Shown one piece after another: positions 15,193 through 32,832 of a stretch of DNA of 34,831 bases. Below the pieces are notes generated by a model that had not been told where the DNA came from, searched no databases, and saw nothing but the letters and a program-made list of their open reading frames with translations. The stretch is from the IMG/VR virus record IMGVR_UViG_3300042305_000983, positions 1 to 34,831 of that record. One strand, 5' to 3'. Within the stretch, counting starts at the first letter, position 1, and each line of letters opens with the position of its first letter. The translations under genes were made by a program, and so were the position numbers. The DNA comes from a virus.

Positions 15193-16089
15193 ATGAATGA
15201 ATATATTAATCAAATAGTTTGTGACAACAGCGTTCATTTTATGAGAAATATAATGAATGAGAATTCGATTGATCTTATTATTACCAGTCCACCATACGGC
15301 GTTGGTATTGATTATGACAGTTGGGATGATGATGAGGAGTTTGAGGATTACAAGAACTTTTCAAGGGAATGGTTAACCGAGGCATACAGGGTCTTAAAAT
15401 CTGATGGTAGAATTTGTTTGAATATCCCATATGAAATCAATAGACAGAAGAAGGGTGGAAGGATCTTTTTCGCCTCTGAGATTTGGCAGATTATGAAGGA
15501 GATCGGATTTGGTTTCTTTGGTATTGTGGATTTGGAGGAGAGTTCACCACATAGAAGTAAAACTACAGCATGGGGATCTTGGATGAGCCCTTCAGCTCCT
15601 TATATCTATAACCCAAAAGAGTGTATCATCTTGGCATATAAGAACTTATCCAAGAAACAGGTTAAGGGAACACCTGAGTGGAAGGGAGAATATCAGAGGG
15701 TTCCAAGTGAAAAGGTTGAGGGTGAGTTCAGAGATAAGTTGGTTTATGATGAGAAGGACAAGAAGGATTTTATGGAACTGGTATTTGGTCAATGGAATTA
15801 TTTTGCGGATACAAGATCTTTGACCAAGGCGACCTTCAGTTTGGATATTCCTTGGAAAGCAATCAAGATCTTGTCATACAAAGAAGATATTATCTTTGAT
15901 CCATTTAATGGAAGTGGAACCACGTGTTTGGCGGCGGAGAAACTCGGAAGAAAATGGATTGGATGTGACATCAGTGAAAACTATTGTGAGGTGGCAAGGA
16001 AAAGAATTAGAGAATATCAGGCAGAAAGAAGTGCAGCCAAAACATTATTTTGTGATGAAATTAAAACTGGAAGATTTTTGGACATATGA
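15193..16089 (+). CDS. DNA methyltransferase, N4-cytosine/N6-adenine type (beta-class order)
   Basis: 298 residues. Motif IV comes first, LIITSPPYGVGIDYDSWDDD (residues ~32-50), and the AdoMet-binding motif I comes late, IIFDPFNGSGTTCLAAEKLG (~235-255), the order typical of beta-class enzymes of the N6/N4 methylase family. TSPPY is compatible with either N4-cytosine or N6-adenine. KTTAWGSWMSPSAPYIYNPK is a conserved core segment of this family. No nuclease partner is adjacent, so it is a solitary phage methyltransferase, probably protecting phage DNA or marking it for packaging. It overlaps the PEP carboxykinase gene by ATGA. Confidence 0.92.
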   Translation: MNEYINQIVCDNSVHFMRNIMNENSIDLIITSPPYGVGIDYDSWDDDEEFEDYKNFSREWLTEAYRVLKSDGRICLNIPYEINRQKKGGRIFFASEIWQIMKEIGFGFFGIVDLEESSPHRSKTTAWGSWMSPSAPYIYNPKECIILAYKNLSKKQVKGTPEWKGEYQRVPSEKVEGEFRDKLVYDEKDKKDFMELVFGQWNYFADTRSLTKATFSLDIPWKAIKILSYKEDIIFDPFNGSGTTCLAAEKLGRKWIGCDISENYCEVARKRIREYQAERSAAKTLFCDEIKTGRFLDI

Positions 16090-17567
16090 TAAAGAGATAT
16101 AATTATTACAACGAAGATCTATATCGGATCGCAATTGACGAAGGGGTTAAGACCACTTCAAAAGGGATTCTTTATTTCCCCACCGGCAAGTTCACGGGAC
16201 GATCTCCCAAAGACAGATATTTCTGTGATGGAGAATATGTTGATAAGGTGATAGACAAATCAAGGGAAATCAACCAAATCATATCAAGGGAAACTTATTC
16301 TAAACTCAAGAATTCTTTGGAAGAACATATCAAGAATTCACCTGTGGAATATAAAACTTCAAGGGTGGTTTGTTATCATAAGAAGTTTCATACTTTGGTT
16401 GACCTTCATACCACCCATGCATGGGCGAACATATTCTTCAATAATATGACCATCAATGCAACGGGGATACAAGCGGAAGGTGGAGGATTTTTTACCAAGT
16501 GGAAGGTTCTTCACGGACCGGAGTTTGTTCCCCAAGAAACATATGAAGATCTTAAAAACCCAAACTTTGTCATCATAGATTTTGAAGACAAAACCATCAT
16601 TATCGGTGGAACCAGTTATACCGGTGAGATAAAGAAAAGTATCTTTACCGTTTTAAATACCATCTTTATTGATCATGGAGTTCTTCCGATGCATTGTTCG
16701 GCAAATGCAAACTCCAAAAATGGAAAAGGGGTTAATCTATTTTTTGGTTTATCGGGAACAGGGAAGACAACTTTATCTTCGGATCCAAATAAGTTTTTTA
16801 TCGGAGACGATGAACACGGATGGTTTGAAGATCATATCTTCAATTTTGAGGGAGGATGTTATGCAAAACTTATTAACCTCAAGAAAGAGAACGAACCAAT
16901 CATTTGGGACTCCATTCATTCTCCTGATAGATTCAATCATACCAACTGTTCTTTGATGGAGAATATCGTTGTGGACGATGAGAACAACCCCGACTTTTCG
17001 GATTCATCGATTACGGAGAATATCCGGGCATCATATTCGTTGGGACAACTCCCTGAAGAGTTTATGGTAGATGATTTGGGACTTGGAAAGAATGTCAAAA
17101 ATATCTTCTTCTTATCTTTTGATGCTTTTGGTGTCTTACCTCCGATTTCAAAACTTGATTTGGAAGACGCAGCAAGATTCTTCAAGATGGGATATACTTC
17201 CAAAGTGGCGGGAACGGAGGTGGGTGTGACCGAACCAACGGTGGTCTTCTCTACCTGTTTCGGATCACCCTTCTTACCAAGAAAAGTGGAAGATTATGTG
17301 GATTTATTCAAAGCGAAAGTCCAAAAGTCGGGGTGTAATGTATGGTTGGTAAATACAGGATTTGATGAAAATCTCAAAAGATATCCGATTGACATAACAC
17401 GAAAAGTTATTAATGGTGTGATCGACGGGAAGTATTCAGAGAAAACATTTGACTATCACGGACTCAAAATTCCCAACAGGATATTGGATCTTGATTTGAT
17501 CACCCTCAAACCCGATATTGAAGAAGAAAGGATTGAGAAATTATTTGAACTTTTGGATCAACATTAA
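16086..17567 (+). CDS. pckA: Phosphoenolpyruvate carboxykinase (ATP)
   Basis: 493 residues covering the whole ATP-type family (E. coli 540). It catalyses oxaloacetate + ATP to PEP + CO2 + ADP. Landmarks: TGRSPKDRYF (substrate Arg, ~37-46), GGTSYTGEIKK then MHCSANAN (~180-210), the P-loop FFGLSGTGKTTLS (~219-231), the metal-binding IGDDEHGW (~239), NFEGGCYAKL, ITENIRASYSLG, DAFGVLPPISKL, and the mobile-lid segment VAGTEVGVTEPT. All catalytic residues that I can check are present, so it should be active. It shares an ATGA junction with the methyltransferase upstream, placing it inside a phage operon. It could push carbon toward PEP, or run backwards to regenerate ATP and oxaloacetate (a source of aspartate for nucleotides). 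Confidence 0.95.
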   Translation: MIKRYNYYNEDLYRIAIDEGVKTTSKGILYFPTGKFTGRSPKDRYFCDGEYVDKVIDKSREINQIISRETYSKLKNSLEEHIKNSPVEYKTSRVVCYHKKFHTLVDLHTTHAWANIFFNNMTINATGIQAEGGGFFTKWKVLHGPEFVPQETYEDLKNPNFVIIDFEDKTIIIGGTSYTGEIKKSIFTVLNTIFIDHGVLPMHCSANANSKNGKGVNLFFGLSGTGKTTLSSDPNKFFIGDDEHGWFEDHIFNFEGGCYAKLINLKKENEPIIWDSIHSPDRFNHTNCSLMENIVVDDENNPDFSDSSITENIRASYSLGQLPEEFMVDDLGLGKNVKNIFFLSFDAFGVLPPISKLDLEDAARFFKMGYTSKVAGTEVGVTEPTVVFSTCFGSPFLPRKVEDYVDLFKAKVQKSGCNVWLVNTGFDENLKRYPIDITRKVINGVIDGKYSEKTFDYHGLKIPNRILDLDLITLKPDIEEERIEKLFELLDQH

Positions 17568-20431: not shown

Positions 20432-20977
20432 TTAATTACGTCTAAAAATAAACCTACCAACATTTATCATACTTCTAATTTCTTCATTTGTATATTTTTC
20501 TGATAGGTATTCGTTCAAATGCAAACTACCACCAACAGATTTGAGATTTTCAAGGGTTTTAATTTTTGTTTCTCTCACATCCAAACTACTACCAACAGAT
20601 TGAAGTTTTGGAAGGGATTTGATTTGTGTTCCTCTCAAACTTAAATAACCAACAACCGATTGAAGATTATCAAGGGATTCGATTGGAGTTCCTTTCAATT
20701 CCAAATTACCACCAACCGATTGAAGATTTCCAAGAAATTTAATTTCTGTCCTTTCCAAATCTAAAAAACCCGTAATGGAAACAAGTCCTTCAAGCCAAGT
20801 TAAACCACCATCATACCCGCCCAAACTTAAATTATCATCCAACGACCATCTTTTGATGTTCTTTTTTTGGATGAAATTTTTCAATCCTCCGATTCTATCA
20901 GGGAAATAATTAAGACCGGGTATAAACAATACCTCTTCGGTTTCCTCTTTCAATATTTGCTTAATAAGTGATCTCAT
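20432..20977 (-). CDS. LRR protein, three central 20-residue repeats
   Basis: The start at 20977 (MRSLIKQILKEETEEVLFIP) is chosen by comparison with four paralogues at 32233-34389; a TTG at 20983 would add two residues. The parts are: leader with I-L-K-E/E, a conserved cap (GLKNFIQKKNIKRWSLDDNL), a first LRR-like unit (LTWLEGLVSITGFLDL...), three full 20-residue units of the type LxNLQSVGGxLxLxGTxIxS, and a final cap ending NEEIRSMINVG. It is a solenoid of the leucine-rich type, probably for binding a protein or glycan. It is the only copy away from the tandem cluster and is followed by DUF192 on the same strand. Virion packaging is inferred from the leader. Confidence 0.85.
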   Translation of the reverse strand: MRSLIKQILKEETEEVLFIPGLNYFPDRIGGLKNFIQKKNIKRWSLDDNLSLGGYDGGLTWLEGLVSITGFLDLERTEIKFLGNLQSVGGNLELKGTPIESLDNLQSVVGYLSLRGTQIKSLPKLQSVGSSLDVRETKIKTLENLKSVGGSLHLNEYLSEKYTNEEIRSMINVGRFIFRRN

Positions 20978-21047
20978 TTCCAATAAATACCCAACTCTTG
21001 ATTAATTGAATTTATATTGTTAGGTTTAAGGACAGAACTTTTTAATT

Positions 21048-22996: not shown

Positions 22997-24040
22997 ATGA
23001 AAGTAAAATTGGAATACATTTGGTTGGATGGGTATGAACCAGAACCGAACCTTAGAAGTAAAGTAAAAGTTGTTGACGCAAAGAGACAACAAGGAGTTGA
23101 TCGAGATGTTTTTGGTATTGAACTTAAAGATTGTCCTGAATGGTCTTTTGATGGATCGTCCACCAATCAAGCTGAGGGACACTTCTCTGATTGTGTCCTA
23201 AAACCCGTTTCCTTATATCCCAACCCACTCAATAAGGGAGTTATACCATCCTACTTTGTGATGTGTGAAGTTTATCTTCCCGATGGAACCCCTCACCCCT
23301 CAAATACGAGATCATATATTGAAACAGAGGATGAAGATCTTTGGTTCGGTTTTGAACAAGAATATACTCTTGTAAAGGACGGAAGACCGTTGGGTTTCCC
23401 AAACAATGGTTATCCCGCTCCACAAGGAAAATACTACTGTGGTGTAGGTAATGGACAGGTCAACGGAAGAACTTTTGTTGATGAGCATTTGGAGATGTGT
23501 ATATACGCAGGGATTGATATTACAGGAACCAACGCTGAGGTGATGCTCGGACAATGGGAATATCAGGTCTTCAGTAAGGGGAAGAAAAAAGCAGGTGATG
23601 ATCTTTGGATCACACGATATATTTTGGAACAGATGTCCGAGAACTACGGATTTAAAATTGAATTCCACCCCAAACCTGTTCAAGGTGATTGGAATGGATC
23701 GGGACTTCACTGTAACTTCTCAAACAAGAGGATGAGAGAAAATGGTAGTAAGGAATATTTCGATGGAATCTTCAAACAATTTGAGGATAGACACTGGTTA
23801 CATATTGAAAACTATGGATCAGACAACAACCTTCGTTTGACAGGAAAACACGAAACACAACATATCTCCAAATTCAGTTGGGGTGTATCTAATCGTGGAG
23901 CGTCAATCAGAGTTCCTTTGAATACCACACATAATAATTGGGCAAGTGGATATTTGGAGGATCGTAGACCTGCTTCTCACGCTGATCCATATAAGATTGT
24001 GAAAGTAATTTCAGATTCTTTGGATTTAGTTGAAGTTTGA
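22997..24040 (+). CDS. Glutamine synthetase, type II (eukaryote-like)
   Basis: 347 residues, the size of GSII (~350) and not the ~450-residue GSI. It forms glutamine from glutamate, ammonia and ATP. Signature segments: WSFDGSSTNQAEG (~49-61), FGFEQEYTLVKDGRPLG (metal Glu residues), TGTNAEVMLGQWEYQV, GDWNGSGLHCNFSN, HIENYGSDNNLRLTGKHET, FSWGVSNRGASIRVP and YLEDRRPASHADPY. All core metal and ATP ligands that I can check are kept. GSII occurs in eukaryotes and some bacteria including Bacteroidota, so a host origin is plausible. No GSI-type adenylylation loop is expected in GSII, so it would escape that control. It is the last gene before the large RNA. Confidence 0.95.
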   Translation: MKVKLEYIWLDGYEPEPNLRSKVKVVDAKRQQGVDRDVFGIELKDCPEWSFDGSSTNQAEGHFSDCVLKPVSLYPNPLNKGVIPSYFVMCEVYLPDGTPHPSNTRSYIETEDEDLWFGFEQEYTLVKDGRPLGFPNNGYPAPQGKYYCGVGNGQVNGRTFVDEHLEMCIYAGIDITGTNAEVMLGQWEYQVFSKGKKKAGDDLWITRYILEQMSENYGFKIEFHPKPVQGDWNGSGLHCNFSNKRMRENGSKEYFDGIFKQFEDRHWLHIENYGSDNNLRLTGKHETQHISKFSWGVSNRGASIRVPLNTTHNNWASGYLEDRRPASHADPYKIVKVISDSLDLVEV

Positions 24041-24042
24041 AC

Positions 24043-24073
24043 TTGACAAATCGAAAAAAAGTTCATACATTTG
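24043..24073 (+). promoter_or_regulatory. Bacteroidota-type promoter P1 upstream of large RNA
   Basis: TTG (24043-24045) in ACTTGACAAATCGAAAA, 20-nt spacer, TACATTTG (24066-24073). The -33 region is nearly identical to that of the second promoter 112 nt downstream. Confidence 0.75.
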
Positions 24074-24117
24074 TAATCCAAACCAAACGAGGTTAGGGTT
24101 TTTTCACGAAAACGATA

Positions 24118-24125
24118 TATTTATA
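24118..24125 (+). promoter_or_regulatory. TATTTATA element inside a palindrome, upstream of large RNA
   Basis: TATTTATA lies within GATATATTTATATATC. A start a few bases downstream would put GGGGATT (24144-24150), which can pair with the RNA 3' end, near the 5' end of the transcript. Confidence 0.4.
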
Positions 24126-24154
24126 TATCACAGAAAAAAAATAGGGGATTTCAC

Positions 24155-24185
24155 TTGACAAAACGAAAATTAAGTTGTAGTTTTG
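24155..24185 (+). promoter_or_regulatory. Bacteroidota-type promoter P2 upstream of large RNA
   Basis: TTG (24155-24157) in ACTTGACAAAACGAAAA, 20-nt spacer, TAGTTTTG (24178-24185). It repeats the -33 context of P1 and would start the RNA near 24190. Confidence 0.75.
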
Positions 24186-24994
24186 TCCTCTGAAATTAGA
24201 GTTCTTTGATTAAAACCTTTTATTGATGGTTTAAACGGTTGGCGGCTTAGCGTCGTTAGATAACCCCGGCGACGGGAATAAAGGGTCGGAATTCAGATCT
24301 AGCAATCTGATTATATGACCGCAGAACATTAGGTGTTCTGACAACTAAGCAAATTACCTACGATAGAAACCCTAAGGGCAACTGCTAAGGGGGTTCTATT
24401 ATCCTGAGTCCGTGGAATATCAGGGTTGAGGTGGTGACACCAATAGGAAAAGGTAAAGATGACGGTTCGAAACAACCTGCCAGTTGTTTGAGGGCTGAGC
24501 ATCAGTCTGATGGGCATCCGATGGAGAATTAATCCGACGTTGTCCTGAAAGGCCGTGAGTGGGCAGACTCACAGAGAGTAGTGTGGTATTCCGTGTTCAA
24601 AAGATATGGAGTCACACCGACAGCGCTACTTTCCATTTCCACATTTGCTAATTTAATACTTAAATTAAGCAAAAGTCTGTCGGCGTTGTAAACGAAAGGT
24701 GTCTAAAACTTCAGACCGTGAGGTTAATGAAGTCTCAGATAAGACCGCAAGTCTTTCTGAGTTGATTGTGAAAGTTCTAGTAGGTCGGCCAACCTTTAGT
24801 GAGTGAAAACTCAATAGAAACGAGTATCAGTCGAGTGGTTTACAACGATACGAGTGGTTACCGATAGTAACCGACACTGATCTGATATCACGGGCAATCG
24901 TGATGGACAAGTTGGCAACCTGTCGTGGGGTACACCAACGAAAGACAGATCACTCAAGCGTGTAGTCTCAGCGCAAACTTAAAGAATCCCCTTA

Positions 24995-25024
24995 CCTTAA
25001 CCGTAGTTGGTTAAGGTTTTTTTT
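24995..25024 (+). terminator. Terminator of the large RNA
   Basis: CCTTAACC (24995-25002) pairs with GGTTAAGG (25009-25016) around GTAGTT, and eight T follow. Confidence 0.92.
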
Positions 25025-25059
25025 GCCCTATTGACTCAAAACAAAAAAAGTTGTATATT

Positions 25060-25067
25060 TATTTATA
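25060..25067 (+). promoter_or_regulatory. TATTTATA element, candidate late promoter
   Basis: TATTTATA (within TATATTTATTTATA) 18 nt before the ATG at 25086. Confidence 0.5.
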
Positions 25068-25085
25068 GTTAATACATTTTATGAA

Positions 25086-25247
25086 ATGAATAATTTAACT
25101 GACGAAGATGAAGACCTCTCCTACATTTGGGGTGGTGGTAAGAAAATTAAAAAACCCAAGAAAAATCAAAAACCGACTGATGGATTTTGGGAAGATGAGT
25201 ATTACGAATCGGATCAGAAGAAAGGAAGAGGTAAAAAAAAGTTTTGA
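25086..25247 (+). CDS. Small charged protein, 53 aa
   Basis: The ATG at 25086 is used; an ATG at 25081 in another frame reaches a stop after two codons. The sequence is MNNLTDEDEDLSYIWGGGKK, then IKKPKKNQKPTDGFWEDEYY, ending KGRGKKKF. It has alternating acidic and strongly basic clusters and looks mostly disordered. Proteins like this can bind DNA or act as scaffolding-type factors, but there is no motif. Support for coding: TATTTATA at the usual distance, and a promoter for the next gene beginning at its stop. Confidence 0.6.
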   Translation: MNNLTDEDEDLSYIWGGGKKIKKPKKNQKPTDGFWEDEYYESDQKKGRGKKKF

Positions 25248-26044: not shown

Positions 26045-26072
26045 AGTATAATTAGAGGTAATTTATAAATTG

Positions 26073-27089
26073 ATGATTAATTTCGCAGACATTATTGTTG
26101 ATCTTCAGGCGGGTGACACAGGTAAAGGGAAAGTAGCTCATGCACTTGCAAAAACAAACGACTATACACACGTTATTAGGTATAACGGAGGTGGTAATGC
26201 GGGTCATACCGTCTATCACAATGGAGAAAAGGTAGTGACCCATTTCATACCAATTGGAGTTCTTTATAACATACCTTCCATTATTGGACCAGGATGTGTC
26301 GTTGATCCAATCAAATTGGAGATGGAACTTGATGATTTAACAAAGGTAAATCCAAGAGTTAGAGAATTTCTTTTTATTGATCGTGGAGTCCATATTATAA
26401 CAGAACAACACAAAGAAGAGGATGGTAAAGATTCTAAAATCGGAACAACCAAAACAGGAAATGGTCCGGCTTATGTGGATAAGTATAATAGAAGTGGGAT
26501 AAGATATGAAAATTATGTGACAATCAACAATCCTTCCAACAACTACCTTTGTGATATTTATGACATTTTATTTTCTCAAGAGGATGTTAAAATTCTTTTC
26601 GAAGGTGCTCAGGGTTTTGAGTTGGATATCGATTGGGGTGATTATCCGTTTGTCACATCTTCTCATTGTACCGCAGGAAGTGCTTGTTTGAATGGTGTAT
26701 CACCCAAATACATCAGAGACATTTATGGTATTTCAAAAGCATATGTTACTTATGTAGGAGCAAAAGAATTCGAGGGTGGTCTTGATATTTTTCAGAAAAT
26801 CAGAGAAGTTGGGAATGAATATGGTGCCACTACGGGAAGACCTAGACAAGTTAATTGGTTGAACATGGACACCCTAATTAAAGGATCCAATATTAACGGA
26901 GTAACAAAATTAATTATCAATAAAATTGATGTTCTCGAAAAAATTAATTATTATTGTTTGATTTATTTGAATGAAGAAATAATTTTTGACAGCAAATTGG
27001 AGTTTAAAAACTTCATCTATCAAAAAATTGTTGAAGAGTGTCCTTTAATTCAAGAAGTAATTTTCAGCTATACACCCTACGAAATATGA
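26073..27089 (+). CDS. Adenylosuccinate synthetase family enzyme (short PurA/PurZ-like)
   Basis: The ATG at 26073 gives 338 residues; a TTG at 26070 would add one. Motifs: VDLQAGDTGKGKVAHAL (bacterial GDEGKGK), RYNGGGNAGHTVYHNG, GPGCVVDP, IGTTKTGNGPAYVDKYNRSG, FEGAQGFELDIDWGDYPFVT and YGATTGRPRQVNWLN. The family joins aspartate to IMP (PurA) or dGMP (phage PurZ, first step to 2-aminoadenine DNA) using GTP or ATP. Length fits archaeal PurA and phage PurZ (~340), not bacterial PurA (~430). The Asp matching the E. coli PurA catalytic Asp13 is kept, whereas it is Ser or Gly in characterised PurZ. So either a PurA activity or a D-retaining phage variant is possible. The next gene overlaps by ATGA. 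Confidence 0.9.
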   Translation: MINFADIIVDLQAGDTGKGKVAHALAKTNDYTHVIRYNGGGNAGHTVYHNGEKVVTHFIPIGVLYNIPSIIGPGCVVDPIKLEMELDDLTKVNPRVREFLFIDRGVHIITEQHKEEDGKDSKIGTTKTGNGPAYVDKYNRSGIRYENYVTINNPSNNYLCDIYDILFSQEDVKILFEGAQGFELDIDWGDYPFVTSSHCTAGSACLNGVSPKYIRDIYGISKAYVTYVGAKEFEGGLDIFQKIREVGNEYGATTGRPRQVNWLNMDTLIKGSNINGVTKLIINKIDVLEKINYYCLIYLNEEIIFDSKLEFKNFIYQKIVEECPLIQEVIFSYTPYEI

Positions 27090-31282: not shown

Positions 31283-31915
31283 ATGTCATACTTGGTCGCC
31301 AACCTACCACCGATTCAATGTTTTGTAAGAAAAGAATACCTGTATGATTTCGAAAAAGGTTTTGGGGAATATGAACCTTGTTACTGGGTTTCGGTAAAAT
31401 CAATCAAAGGTAAAGCGTTATATATAGAATCACTTCTAACGAACTACGGAGCGTTATATGATAAATTACCTATCTCCGCATATGTGTGGAAAACAGATAT
31501 ACAAGATGAATTTCTTCCGTTGGATTTTTTGGAGATATGGGATGCATTTTCTTATAATATATCTGTGATTGAGAAATCAACCTTATCGGGACTTAAGTGT
31601 CAAGTACTTATGAAAGACAAGAAATTTTATAGAGGGGAATATATGTTTACCATAGATTCCTGTAGTTCTGAACCAAACGAATTGAATGTTTCATTATCTG
31701 AAACACCGAACGAACATAAGTCCTTCAATATTATCAAATTGGACAACGGACAATTTGCTGCTCAACCAAACAACAGGATTTTATTCTTTGATCAATCCCT
31801 GACACCCAAAGGTATTACCAAGCCCGATTTTAAGGTGTCAACCAAAGAATTTAAGTGTGAGGATGGATCAAAGTGGTCGGCGGATTCTAATGATTTCTTT
31901 TACGAAATTTGTTAA
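31283..31915 (+). CDS. Conserved phage protein (SYLVANLPPIQCFVR type), 210 aa
   Basis: MSYLVANLPPIQCFVRKEYL, then PCYWVSVKSIKGKALYIESL, YGALYDKLPISAYVWKTDI, LPLDFLEIWDAFSYNISVIE, YRGEYMFTIDSC and LDNGQFAAQPNNRILFFDQS. I recognise this arrangement as a family found widely in phages of several bacterial phyla, but its function is not known. It looks all-beta with many conserved aromatic and Pro residues, as in structural or tail-associated proteins. The start lies 8 nt after the previous stop. Confidence 0.85.
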   Translation: MSYLVANLPPIQCFVRKEYLYDFEKGFGEYEPCYWVSVKSIKGKALYIESLLTNYGALYDKLPISAYVWKTDIQDEFLPLDFLEIWDAFSYNISVIEKSTLSGLKCQVLMKDKKFYRGEYMFTIDSCSSEPNELNVSLSETPNEHKSFNIIKLDNGQFAAQPNNRILFFDQSLTPKGITKPDFKVSTKEFKCEDGSKWSADSNDFFYEIC

Positions 31916-32232: not shown

Positions 32233-32832
32233 TCATAGTCTAACAATAAAACCACCAACATCCACCGTACTTTTTATTTCTTCATTTGTTTTTGTTGATA
32301 AATAACTGTTCAAATAAAGTCTTGAACCAACAGATTTAAGATTTCCAAAGGATTCAATTTGTGTTCCTCTTATGTCCAAATAACCACCTACATATTGAAG
32401 ATTTCCAAGGGATTTAATTGGTGTTTTATTTAAATCCAAAGATGCTCCAACAGCCCTGAGATTTCCAAGGGATTCAATTGGAGTTTCTTCCAAATTCAAA
32501 TAATCATCAACATATTGAAGATTTCCAAGAGATTCAATTTGTGAGTTGTATAGGTTCAAATAACCATCAACCGATATAAGATTTTTGAAGGATTTGATTT
32601 CTGTTCCATACGCATCAAAATCACCACTAATAGAAACAAGACCCTCAAGCCAAGTTAAATCACCTTTATAACCACCCAAATTCAACTTACTATCCAACGA
32701 CCATCTTGTGATGTTATTTTTTTTGATGAAGTTTTTTAGTCCTTCAACTCCATCAGCGAAATAGTGAAGACCAGGTATTACAAATATCTCTTCGGTTTCC
32801 TCTTTTAATATTTTTTTGATTAGGTCTTTCAT
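32233..32832 (-). CDS. LRR protein, four central 20-residue repeats
   Basis: Last gene of a four-gene LRR operon, 199 residues. Leader MKDLIKKILKEETEEIFVIP, cap with GLKNFIKKNNITRWSLDSKL, first unit (LTWLEGLVSISGDFDAYGTE...), then four full 20-residue units: FKNLISVDGYLNLYNSQIES, LGNLQYVDDYLNLEETPIES, LGNLRAVGASLDLNKTPIKS and LGNLQYVGGYLDIRGTQIES, and an end cap with NEEIKSTVDVGG. Its repeats are the most diverged of the five. It shares its start A with the stop of the preceding gene (TAATG). Function unknown; a binding solenoid is inferred. Confidence 0.85.
   Translation of the reverse strand: MKDLIKKILKEETEEIFVIPGLHYFADGVEGLKNFIKKNNITRWSLDSKLNLGGYKGDLTWLEGLVSISGDFDAYGTEIKSFKNLISVDGYLNLYNSQIESLGNLQYVDDYLNLEETPIESLGNLRAVGASLDLNKTPIKSLGNLQYVGGYLDIRGTQIESFGNLKSVGSRLYLNSYLSTKTNEEIKSTVDVGGFIVRL

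What the first reader, a model, noticed from the sequence alone, without database searches (positions are those of the whole stretch)
24041..25085. About 0.9-kb structured non-coding RNA between glutamine synthetase and a small ORF
There is no credible ORF for ~1 kb, in a genome otherwise almost fully coding. More than ten stems, several GNRA loops and an enclosed multi-branch region are visible, with host-type promoters upstream and a perfect terminator. Known giant phage-associated RNAs (GOLLD, ROOL) have this scale and setting. If it is GOLLD/ROOL it extends the class to this phage group; if not, it is a new large RNA.
Basis: partly seen in the sequence, partly recalled or inferred. Interest (0 to 1): 0.88.

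Follow-up and report, generated by a model that had tools for sequence, protein, structure and literature searches.

The report
GOLLD RNA in a large phage
The gap between two genes of a large bacterial virus encodes GOLLD, a known giant RNA whose solved relative builds a hollow RNA cage; this copy belongs to a GOLLD subtype that, unlike its sister subtype, is rarely found next to transfer-RNA genes.

Summary
Window 24574-24974 matches the whole Rfam GOLLD model (RF02032, 263.5 bits, cut-off 150, E 3.5e-74). ROOL, OLE and HEARO gave nothing. That model covers only the 3' domain. Upstream lies a separate 5' domain, about 24240-24572. Its structure, derived from 13 sequences, is kept in 98.8% of cells of 22 further sequences under 95% identical to those used. 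Over both domains, 109 of 178 pairs show changes on both sides in 33 sequences. Two Bacteroidota-type promoter-like sites and a terminator frame it.

GOLLD occurs in 23 of 81 related IMG/VR records and 2 of 3 huge phages tested. The GOLLDs collected fall into two types that split identically in 5'- and 3'-domain trees. tRNA genes lie within 700 nt in 44 of 59 type B loci but 2 of 27 of the window's type A. In the window's small clade a loop that is a kissing contact in the solved GOLLD has become a GAAA tetraloop. New member of a known RNA class; cage assembly is inferred and its function unknown.

The parts
24043..24073 (+). distal promoter-like site (TTGACA ... TACATTTG), Bacteroidota form (form recalled)
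   Evidence: a site of the form TTG-N17-26-TAnnTTTG lies within 260 nt upstream of the 5' domain in 23 of 24 loci (18 of 19 after dropping five near-identical ones)
24155..24185 (+). proximal promoter-like site (TTGACA ... TAGTTTTG)
   Evidence: also in L100, L101, L102, L103
24240..24572 (+). GOLLD 5' domain, type A, 16 helices; not covered by the Rfam model
   Evidence: similarity to the more distant relatives begins at about 24241 in most; 45 of 82 pairs with double changes in 13 sequences; 1985 of 2007 cells paired in 25 sequences not used, 1747 of 1768 in the 22 of them under 95% identical to those used
24574..24974 (+). GOLLD 3' domain (Rfam RF02032, full model)
   Evidence: 93 of 96 Rfam pairs are standard pairs in the window; 70 of 96 pairs with double changes in 21 sequences
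24634..24683 (+). variable linker inside the 3' domain; disordered and inside the cage in the solved GOLLD; here it can form a hairpin at 24644-24673; no tRNA
   Evidence: predicted hairpin; no tRNA; cage position from PMC12286853 section 7
24786..24791 (+). loop CGGCCA of the hairpin taken as P21a, palindromic GGCC centre; candidate self-kissing loop (bridge B8)
   Evidence: aligned centre GC in 19 of 21; in the other 2 (L111, L112) the loop is read as GUCGAA with centre CG; GC/CG switching at L21a reported in PMC12286853
24800..24813 (+). hairpin taken as P21b, here with a GAAA tetraloop; loops of relatives hold GC or CG
   Evidence: candidate loss of bridge B9 in the window's clade
24994..25024 (+). 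intrinsic terminator
   Evidence: hairpin-and-T-run sequences after the RNA in relatives seen by eye, not scanned

Best explanation
This is a GOLLD RNA gene of a large phage whose host is probably a member of Bacteroidota. Host-type RNA polymerase would transcribe it alone from one or two promoters to an intrinsic terminator, giving an untranslated RNA of about 0.8 kb (inferred). The RNA folds into a 5' and a 3' domain (shown by covariation). By homology to the solved env-38 GOLLD, in which these domains form the cap and ring of each half-shell, it should self-assemble into a hollow homo-oligomeric RNA cage (inferred). It most likely accumulates during the lytic phase as an accessory, non-essential factor, as reported for a Lactobacillus brevis prophage; what the cage holds or excludes is unknown. 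In this lineage tRNAs are unlikely to be the dedicated cargo, since no tRNA gene lies in the linker or elsewhere on the contig.
For: Membership. Structure under selection. The 5' domain goes with the 3' domain: a 27-nt motif of the 5' domain found 95 stretches in IMG/VR (80 listed), and 48 of 50 records tested carry RF02032 above cut-off; the two domains give the same A|B split with support 1.0. Transcription signals. Not coding. Cage contact: GC or CG centre of L21a in 21 of 21. Phage: lysozyme, transglycosylase, thymidylate synthase, dCMP deaminase in the window; T4-type portal in 5 of 17 GOLLD-bearing records. Host: promoter form; of 80 listed bacterial and archaeal homologues of the neighbouring glutamine synthetase, 54 bear Bacteroidota names by my reading of the titles, the best nine among them; phages over 634 kb predicted to replicate in Bacteroidetes (PMC7162821 passage). 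Cage, and rise during lysis: PMC12286853. Accumulates in lytic growth but dispensable for phage production: PMC7567579 passage.
Against: No transcript or structure was seen for this sequence. The loop taken as the second self-kissing loop (L21b, bridge B9) is a GAAA tetraloop here, so the half-shell contact cannot be identical. A test of the L20 kissing contact was inconclusive, with 2 bp in the window. The L22/J17-22 pseudoknot reaches only 2 bp in the window, as in 10 other sequences of 21, against 3-4 bp in 10. Host evidence is indirect: 26 of the 80 listed glutamine synthetase hits bear other names, and identity is 60% at best; GOLLD was not found in 13 Bacteroidota genomes. The portal was not found in the 152-kb relative of the window's own clade (G001). 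Shuffle controls do not correct for relatedness.
Confidence: 0.75

Rival explanations
1. Same RNA family, but in this lineage it works as a monomer or small oligomer, for example as a decoy for ribosomes or RNA-binding proteins, and not as a closed cage.
For: The loop taken as L21b is a GAAA tetraloop; the L22 pseudoknot and the candidate L20 contact are weak in the window. Ribosome binding of GOLLD in pull-downs is mentioned in PMC12286853.
Against: The L21a palindrome and the whole fold are kept; a GNRA tetraloop could replace a kissing loop by an A-minor contact (general knowledge).
Confidence: 0.18
2. A decaying GOLLD copy that is still recognisable but no longer functional.
For: The window and its four nearest relatives score 259.6-271.7 bits, against 285.9-326.5 for the other hits; loop changes.
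Against: Others of the family also score low (275.3; 277 and one of 198). 93 of 96 Rfam pairs are standard in the window. L100 and L103, 81-83% identical over about 2.9 kb, keep pairing, promoter-like sites and terminator sequences.
Confidence: 0.04
3. A long leader or riboswitch controlling the small ORF downstream.
For: A small ORF starts soon after the terminator.
Against: A terminator separates them and a promoter-like site lies at 25031; in relatives the next ORF differs in size and sometimes strand; the Rfam match is a stand-alone RNA.
Confidence: 0.02
4. An overlooked protein-coding gene, for example the antisense ORF 24329-24517.
For: The 62-aa antisense frame is open in the window and also in L100 and L103.
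Against: The frame has stops in 28 of 33 type A RNAs; base-pair covariation throughout.
Confidence: 0.01

Closest known systems
GOLLD RNA (Rfam RF02032)
   Same: full 3'-domain model matched, two-domain layout with variable linker, phage origin, terminator directly after it, about 0.8 kb
   Different: no tRNA gene in the contig; next to glutamine synthetase; L21b is a GAAA tetraloop; 5' domain of the shorter of two types (both domains: type A median 742 nt, type B 811 nt)
GOLLD env-38, solved as a 14-mer cage (PMC12286853; abstract, sections 7, 8, 9, 19 and passages read)
   Same: 3' domain with GC centre in the loop taken as L21a; env-38 lies downstream of a Met-tRNA, as do many type B loci found here (41 of 95)
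   Different: env-38 sequence not available here, so its 5' domain could not be aligned; its 5' region is given as residues 1-420, against about 333 nt in the window
ROOL, OLE, HEARO RNAs
   Same: size and, for ROOL, phage setting
   Different: no match up to E = 1 in a full Rfam scan of the region
ICP1 phage ~800-nt abundant non-coding transcript (PMC7567579, one passage read)
   Same: phage RNA of like length in a phage without tRNAs
   Different: not compared by sequence here

Membership tests
GOLLD (RF02032) | score above the curated cut-off over the whole model | tested here: met
   263.5 bits against 150, model 1-416 of 416
GOLLD (RF02032) | conserved secondary structure of the 3' domain | tested here: met
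   93 of 96 pairs standard in the window; 89.9% of cells, 70 of 96 pairs with double changes, 0 of 500 shuffles as high; weakest helix 68.7%
GOLLD (RF02032) | separate, less conserved structured 5' domain | tested here: met
   identity with env-38's 5' domain not testable
GOLLD (RF02032) | variable linker in the 3' domain | tested here: met
   24634-24683; length and sequence vary in relatives
GOLLD (RF02032) | encoded by phages or prophages | tested here: met
   for the window; T4-type portal in 5 of 17 GOLLD-bearing records
GOLLD (RF02032) | often near tRNA genes (usual, not obligatory) | tested here: not met
   no tRNA in the window; 2 of 27 type A loci against 44 of 59 type B
GOLLD 14-mer cage | palindromic L21a centre (bridge B8) | tested here: met
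   GC in 19 and CG in 2 of 21; L21a assigned by order of hairpins and position in the Rfam model, not from the coordinates of the structure
GOLLD 14-mer cage | self-kissing L21b loop (bridge B9) | tested here: not met
   GAAA in the window and L103, UGUAAU in L100; the loop holds GC or CG in the other 18 of 21 by eye and in 104 of 107 by an automatic fold that is known to have mis-folded many L21a loops
GOLLD 14-mer cage | L20 kissing contact (bridge B7) | tested here: inconclusive
   complementarity of L20 to the loop at 24561-24566: 4 bp in 9, 3 bp in 4, 2 bp in 6 of 19, window 2 bp; 4 of 2000 permutations as high; this partner is not the one named in the paper
GOLLD 14-mer cage | homo-oligomer in vitro | not testable with these tools
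   needs bench work
ROOL, OLE, HEARO | Rfam match | tested here: not met

The most novel reading that the evidence does not exclude
GOLLD in these large phages consists of two old lineages. Type B (longer 5' domain, with extra sequence that includes a GAAA hairpin) is coupled to tRNA genes; type A (window) has a smaller 5' cap, has lost or never had the tRNA coupling, and in the window's clade has re-wired a half-shell contact. If so, type A builds a different cage whose function does not depend on tRNAs.
Probability: 0.35. Interest if true: 0.62.

Novelty: new member of a known kind. Interest (0 to 1): 0.45.

Why it matters
GOLLD is one of few natural RNAs shown to build a protein-free cage, and its function is unknown (PMC12286853). 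The work here gives a 5'-domain structure with strong covariation that the Rfam model lacks, many homologues from viral contigs including two of the largest phage genomes, and a natural contrast (type A against type B) that lets one ask whether the tRNA link is part of the function. It also names one contact, L21b, that nature has altered, for a structural test.

Tried and rejected
Coding gene, riboswitch or leader, ROOL, OLE and HEARO: rejected (see rivals). BLASTN of the region and of one divergent homologue against 50,697 phage records found nothing. GOLLD in 13 Bacteroidota genomes that hold a related glutamine synthetase: 0 of 13 (the tool warns this does not show absence, and at most 50 candidates per genome were scored). 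Phage tail sheath as a lineage marker: 3 of 17, one over cut-off, not informative. A search for the L20 partner by covariation gave no clear single partner; a follow-up on the loop at 24561-24566 was suggestive but not for the window. An automatic count of L21a loops over 107 sequences mis-folded many and is not used. PurZ identity of the neighbouring adenylosuccinate synthetase: 119.5 bits, below the cut-off of 300, not claimed. Weinberg et al. 2009, the original description, is not held; statements about it come from later papers.

Papers: PMC12286853 abstract, sections 7, 8, 9, 19 and passages; PMC7162821, PMC5643018, PMC6582537, PMC7567579 passages only; PMC12619734 abstract and passages; others only as search listings. 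I met no description of GOLLD in Bacteroidota phages, but looked only (21 papers with the word; listing), in a library of openly licensed papers.

Rows dropped: near-identical loci L090, L093, L107, L101, L102 from then on; L099 and L106 also from A1, A2 and the 19-sequence set; L098 from the ORF comparison, because its 5' end was not found by the pattern; 33 of 237 loci not full length; 11 of 204 with under 300 nt upstream from the first tRNA count; 13 type B and 8 type A with under 500 nt of flank from the second. Four loci fitting neither 27-mer were assigned by a rule in the script (L094, L095, L106 to A, L112 to B). LR756503, as long as LR756501, was not searched.

Full report
What was claimed. 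A roughly 0.9-kb structured non-coding RNA between glutamine synthetase and a small ORF, perhaps GOLLD or ROOL.

What is there. A scan of the window with all 4227 Rfam families at the curated cut-offs gave one match: GOLLD, RF02032, 24574-24974 on the + strand, 263.5 bits (cut-off 150), E 3.5e-74, the complete model 1-416. A permissive scan of 24030-25090 up to E = 1 gave only the same match. The window is a 34,831-base virus record, without tRNA genes.

Not coding. The only ORF of 60 aa or more in the gap is 62 aa and antisense; its frame has at least one stop in 28 of 33 aligned type A RNAs, and is open in the window, L100, L103, L219 and L256. In 18 homologous loci, 9 have no ATG ORF of 50 aa or more mostly inside the RNA; the rest have ORFs at differing places and strands, overlapping only in part. 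G+C is 44% against 35%. The RNA 24237-25020 folds to -256.9 kcal/mol; 20 dinucleotide shuffles give -216.4 +/- 6.4, z -6.3, none as low.

Ends. Similarity with distant relatives begins at about 24241 in most. Two promoter-like sites of the form TTG-N-TAnnTTTG lie at 24043-24073 and 24155-24185. The form has 16 end positions on the + strand and 6 on the - strand of the window, against a mean of 4.5 (highest 9) in 60 Markov sequences; it lies upstream of the RNA in 23 of 24 homologous loci, five of them near-identical to others, L092 being the exception. That this is the Bacteroidota promoter form is recalled, not from a call. The plain sigma-70 scan found no excess (8 sites against 11.6 in shuffles). 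A terminator lies at 24994-25017 with a T run; hairpin-and-T sequences vary at this place in relatives (by eye). The start near 24190 is inferred.

Homologues. The glutamine synthetase protein drew 80 loci from IMG/VR (best 80 of 598) and a GOLLD pattern drew 3, from 81 different records; 23 of the 81 carry GOLLD above cut-off (19 of 50, 4 of 31). Many records without it are short fragments, some long ones lack it too (for example G078, 297,623 bases; G023, 190,552). Three huge uncultured phages with a related glutamine synthetase were searched: GOLLD is in LR756502 (642 kb) and LR745206 (634 kb), not found in LR756501 (735 kb) under stricter filters.

5' domain. RNAalifold on 13 sequences gave 82 pairs. 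By count, 98.5% of cells pair, 45 of 82 pairs have a change on both sides, and no shuffle of 500 reaches any of the five measures; sliding partners by 1-3 columns drops pairing to 29-42%. Because the structure came from the same sequences, it was tested on 25 others: 1985 of 2007 cells pair (98.9%), against 31-43% when slid. Three of the 25 are 95% or more identical to a sequence used; without them 1747 of 1768 (98.8%, 22 sequences), and with only those under 90%, 1190 of 1206 (98.7%, 15 sequences).

3' domain. The Rfam structure was projected through the window onto a MAFFT alignment that did not use it. In the window 93 of 96 pairs are standard. In 21 sequences 89.9% of cells pair and 70 of 96 pairs have double changes, 0 of 500 shuffles as high. 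In 25 sequences not in that alignment 2244 of 2394 cells pair (93.7%), in the 21 of these under 95% identical 1882 of 2011 (93.6%). In the 33-sequence type A alignment, both domains together: 96.0% of cells, 109 of 178 pairs with double changes. Against it: four pairs (columns 378/403, 607/645, 694/700, 718/782, in helices 18, 24, 27 and 28) are mostly unpaired there.

Two types. Of 50 type A records tested, 48 carry RF02032 above cut-off; in the other two the motif lies near a contig end. All 211 loci from these two scans that were held gave a match to a profile of the whole RNA. Of 237 loci 204 are full length, some from the same record. At 95% identity 107 remain. Trees of the 5' domain alone and of the 3' domain alone both split type A (35) from type B (72) with support 1.0, so no exchange of domains between types is seen. 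Type A RNAs have a median of 742 nt (727-763, 33 RNAs), type B 811 (776-850, 71 RNAs). The two huge phages are type B (L111 by motif, L112 by rule). Type B carries an insert with a GAAA-capped hairpin in the sequences I looked at.

tRNA setting. Within 700 nt, tRNA genes were found in 66 of 95 type B loci (41 with tRNA-Met upstream), 4 of 94 type A loci and 1 of 4 unassigned; none lies inside any of these 193 RNAs; 11 loci were dropped for short flank. With one locus per 95% cluster and at least 500 nt of flank on both sides: 44 of 59 type B, 2 of 27 type A. This is a correlation across one split, so it counts as one or few evolutionary events, not 86 independent ones.

Window's clade. Glutamine synthetase within 2.5 kb of GOLLD (where that much was held) occurs only in L001 (window), L100 and L103 among the 107; L101 and L102 are 98% identical to the window over 3.4 kb. 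In the solved GOLLD, L21a and L21b form self-kissing contacts between half-shells, and L21a switches between GC and CG (PMC12286853). Here the loop taken as L21a has a GC centre in 19 of 21 sequences, and in the other two (L111, L112), where the alignment is shifted, I read the loop as GUCGAA with a CG centre; in the window it is CGGCCA. The loop taken as L21b is GAAA in the window and L103 and UGUAAU in L100, and holds GC or CG in the other 18 of 21 and in 104 of 107 by an automatic fold (the same routine mis-folded many L21a loops). I assigned L21a and L21b by order of hairpins and position in the model, not from the deposited coordinates.

Mechanism. Shown: sequence membership, conserved two-domain fold, transcription signals, phage setting. 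Inferred: transcription by host polymerase, cage assembly (from the solved relative, a 14-mer down to 12.5 nM), accumulation during lysis. PMC7567579 reports that in a Lactobacillus brevis prophage GOLLD accumulates in lytic infection but is dispensable for phage production. What the cage does is not known. The near-absence of tRNA genes beside type A argues against tRNA carriage as the general function.

Host and phage. The form of the promoters, the homologues of the glutamine synthetase (54 of 80 listed bear Bacteroidota names by my reading of titles, including the best nine; 26 bear others, such as Planctomycetota, Verrucomicrobiota, Balneolaceae, archaea) and the published prediction for the huge phages agree on Bacteroidota, none of them directly. 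Five of 17 GOLLD-bearing records have a T4-type portal, G001 of the window's own clade not. A paper on aquatic Bacteroidota 'moraphages', nine with glutamine synthetase, describes a plausible lineage, but no gene was compared with theirs; it is not among the 21 papers that hold the word GOLLD.

Verdict. Real, well supported, and a member of a known class. New here are the 5'-domain model, the A/B split with its tRNA contrast, and the altered loop.

Noticed in passing
window 16086-17567 (+): ATP-type phosphoenolpyruvate carboxykinase (PF01293, E 4e-140) in a phage contig; no PHROG match. An unusual auxiliary metabolic gene (judgement from memory).
   Followed up: partly
window 26070-27089 (+): Short (339 aa) adenylosuccinate synthetase: PF00709 262.6 bits; its PHROG is '2-aminooxy adenylosuccinate synthetase', but NCBIfam PurZ is below its cut-off (119.5 against 300). 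Whether the phage uses 2-aminoadenine is open.
   Followed up: partly
   Followed up: partly
window 31283-31915 (+): Protein matching the PHROG 'ferredoxin' family phrog_3704 at E 5e-91, but no NCBIfam family.
   Followed up: no
window 20432-20983 (-) and 32233-32832 (-): Two proteins of the minus strand with weak Receptor L domain matches.
   Followed up: no
L085, L087, L088, L104, L111, L112: Type B GOLLD loci with a tRNA gene within about 200 nt of the RNA; in L112 (642-kb phage) a tRNA-like gene begins about 10 nt after the 3' domain, so RNA and tRNA may share a transcript.
   Followed up: partly
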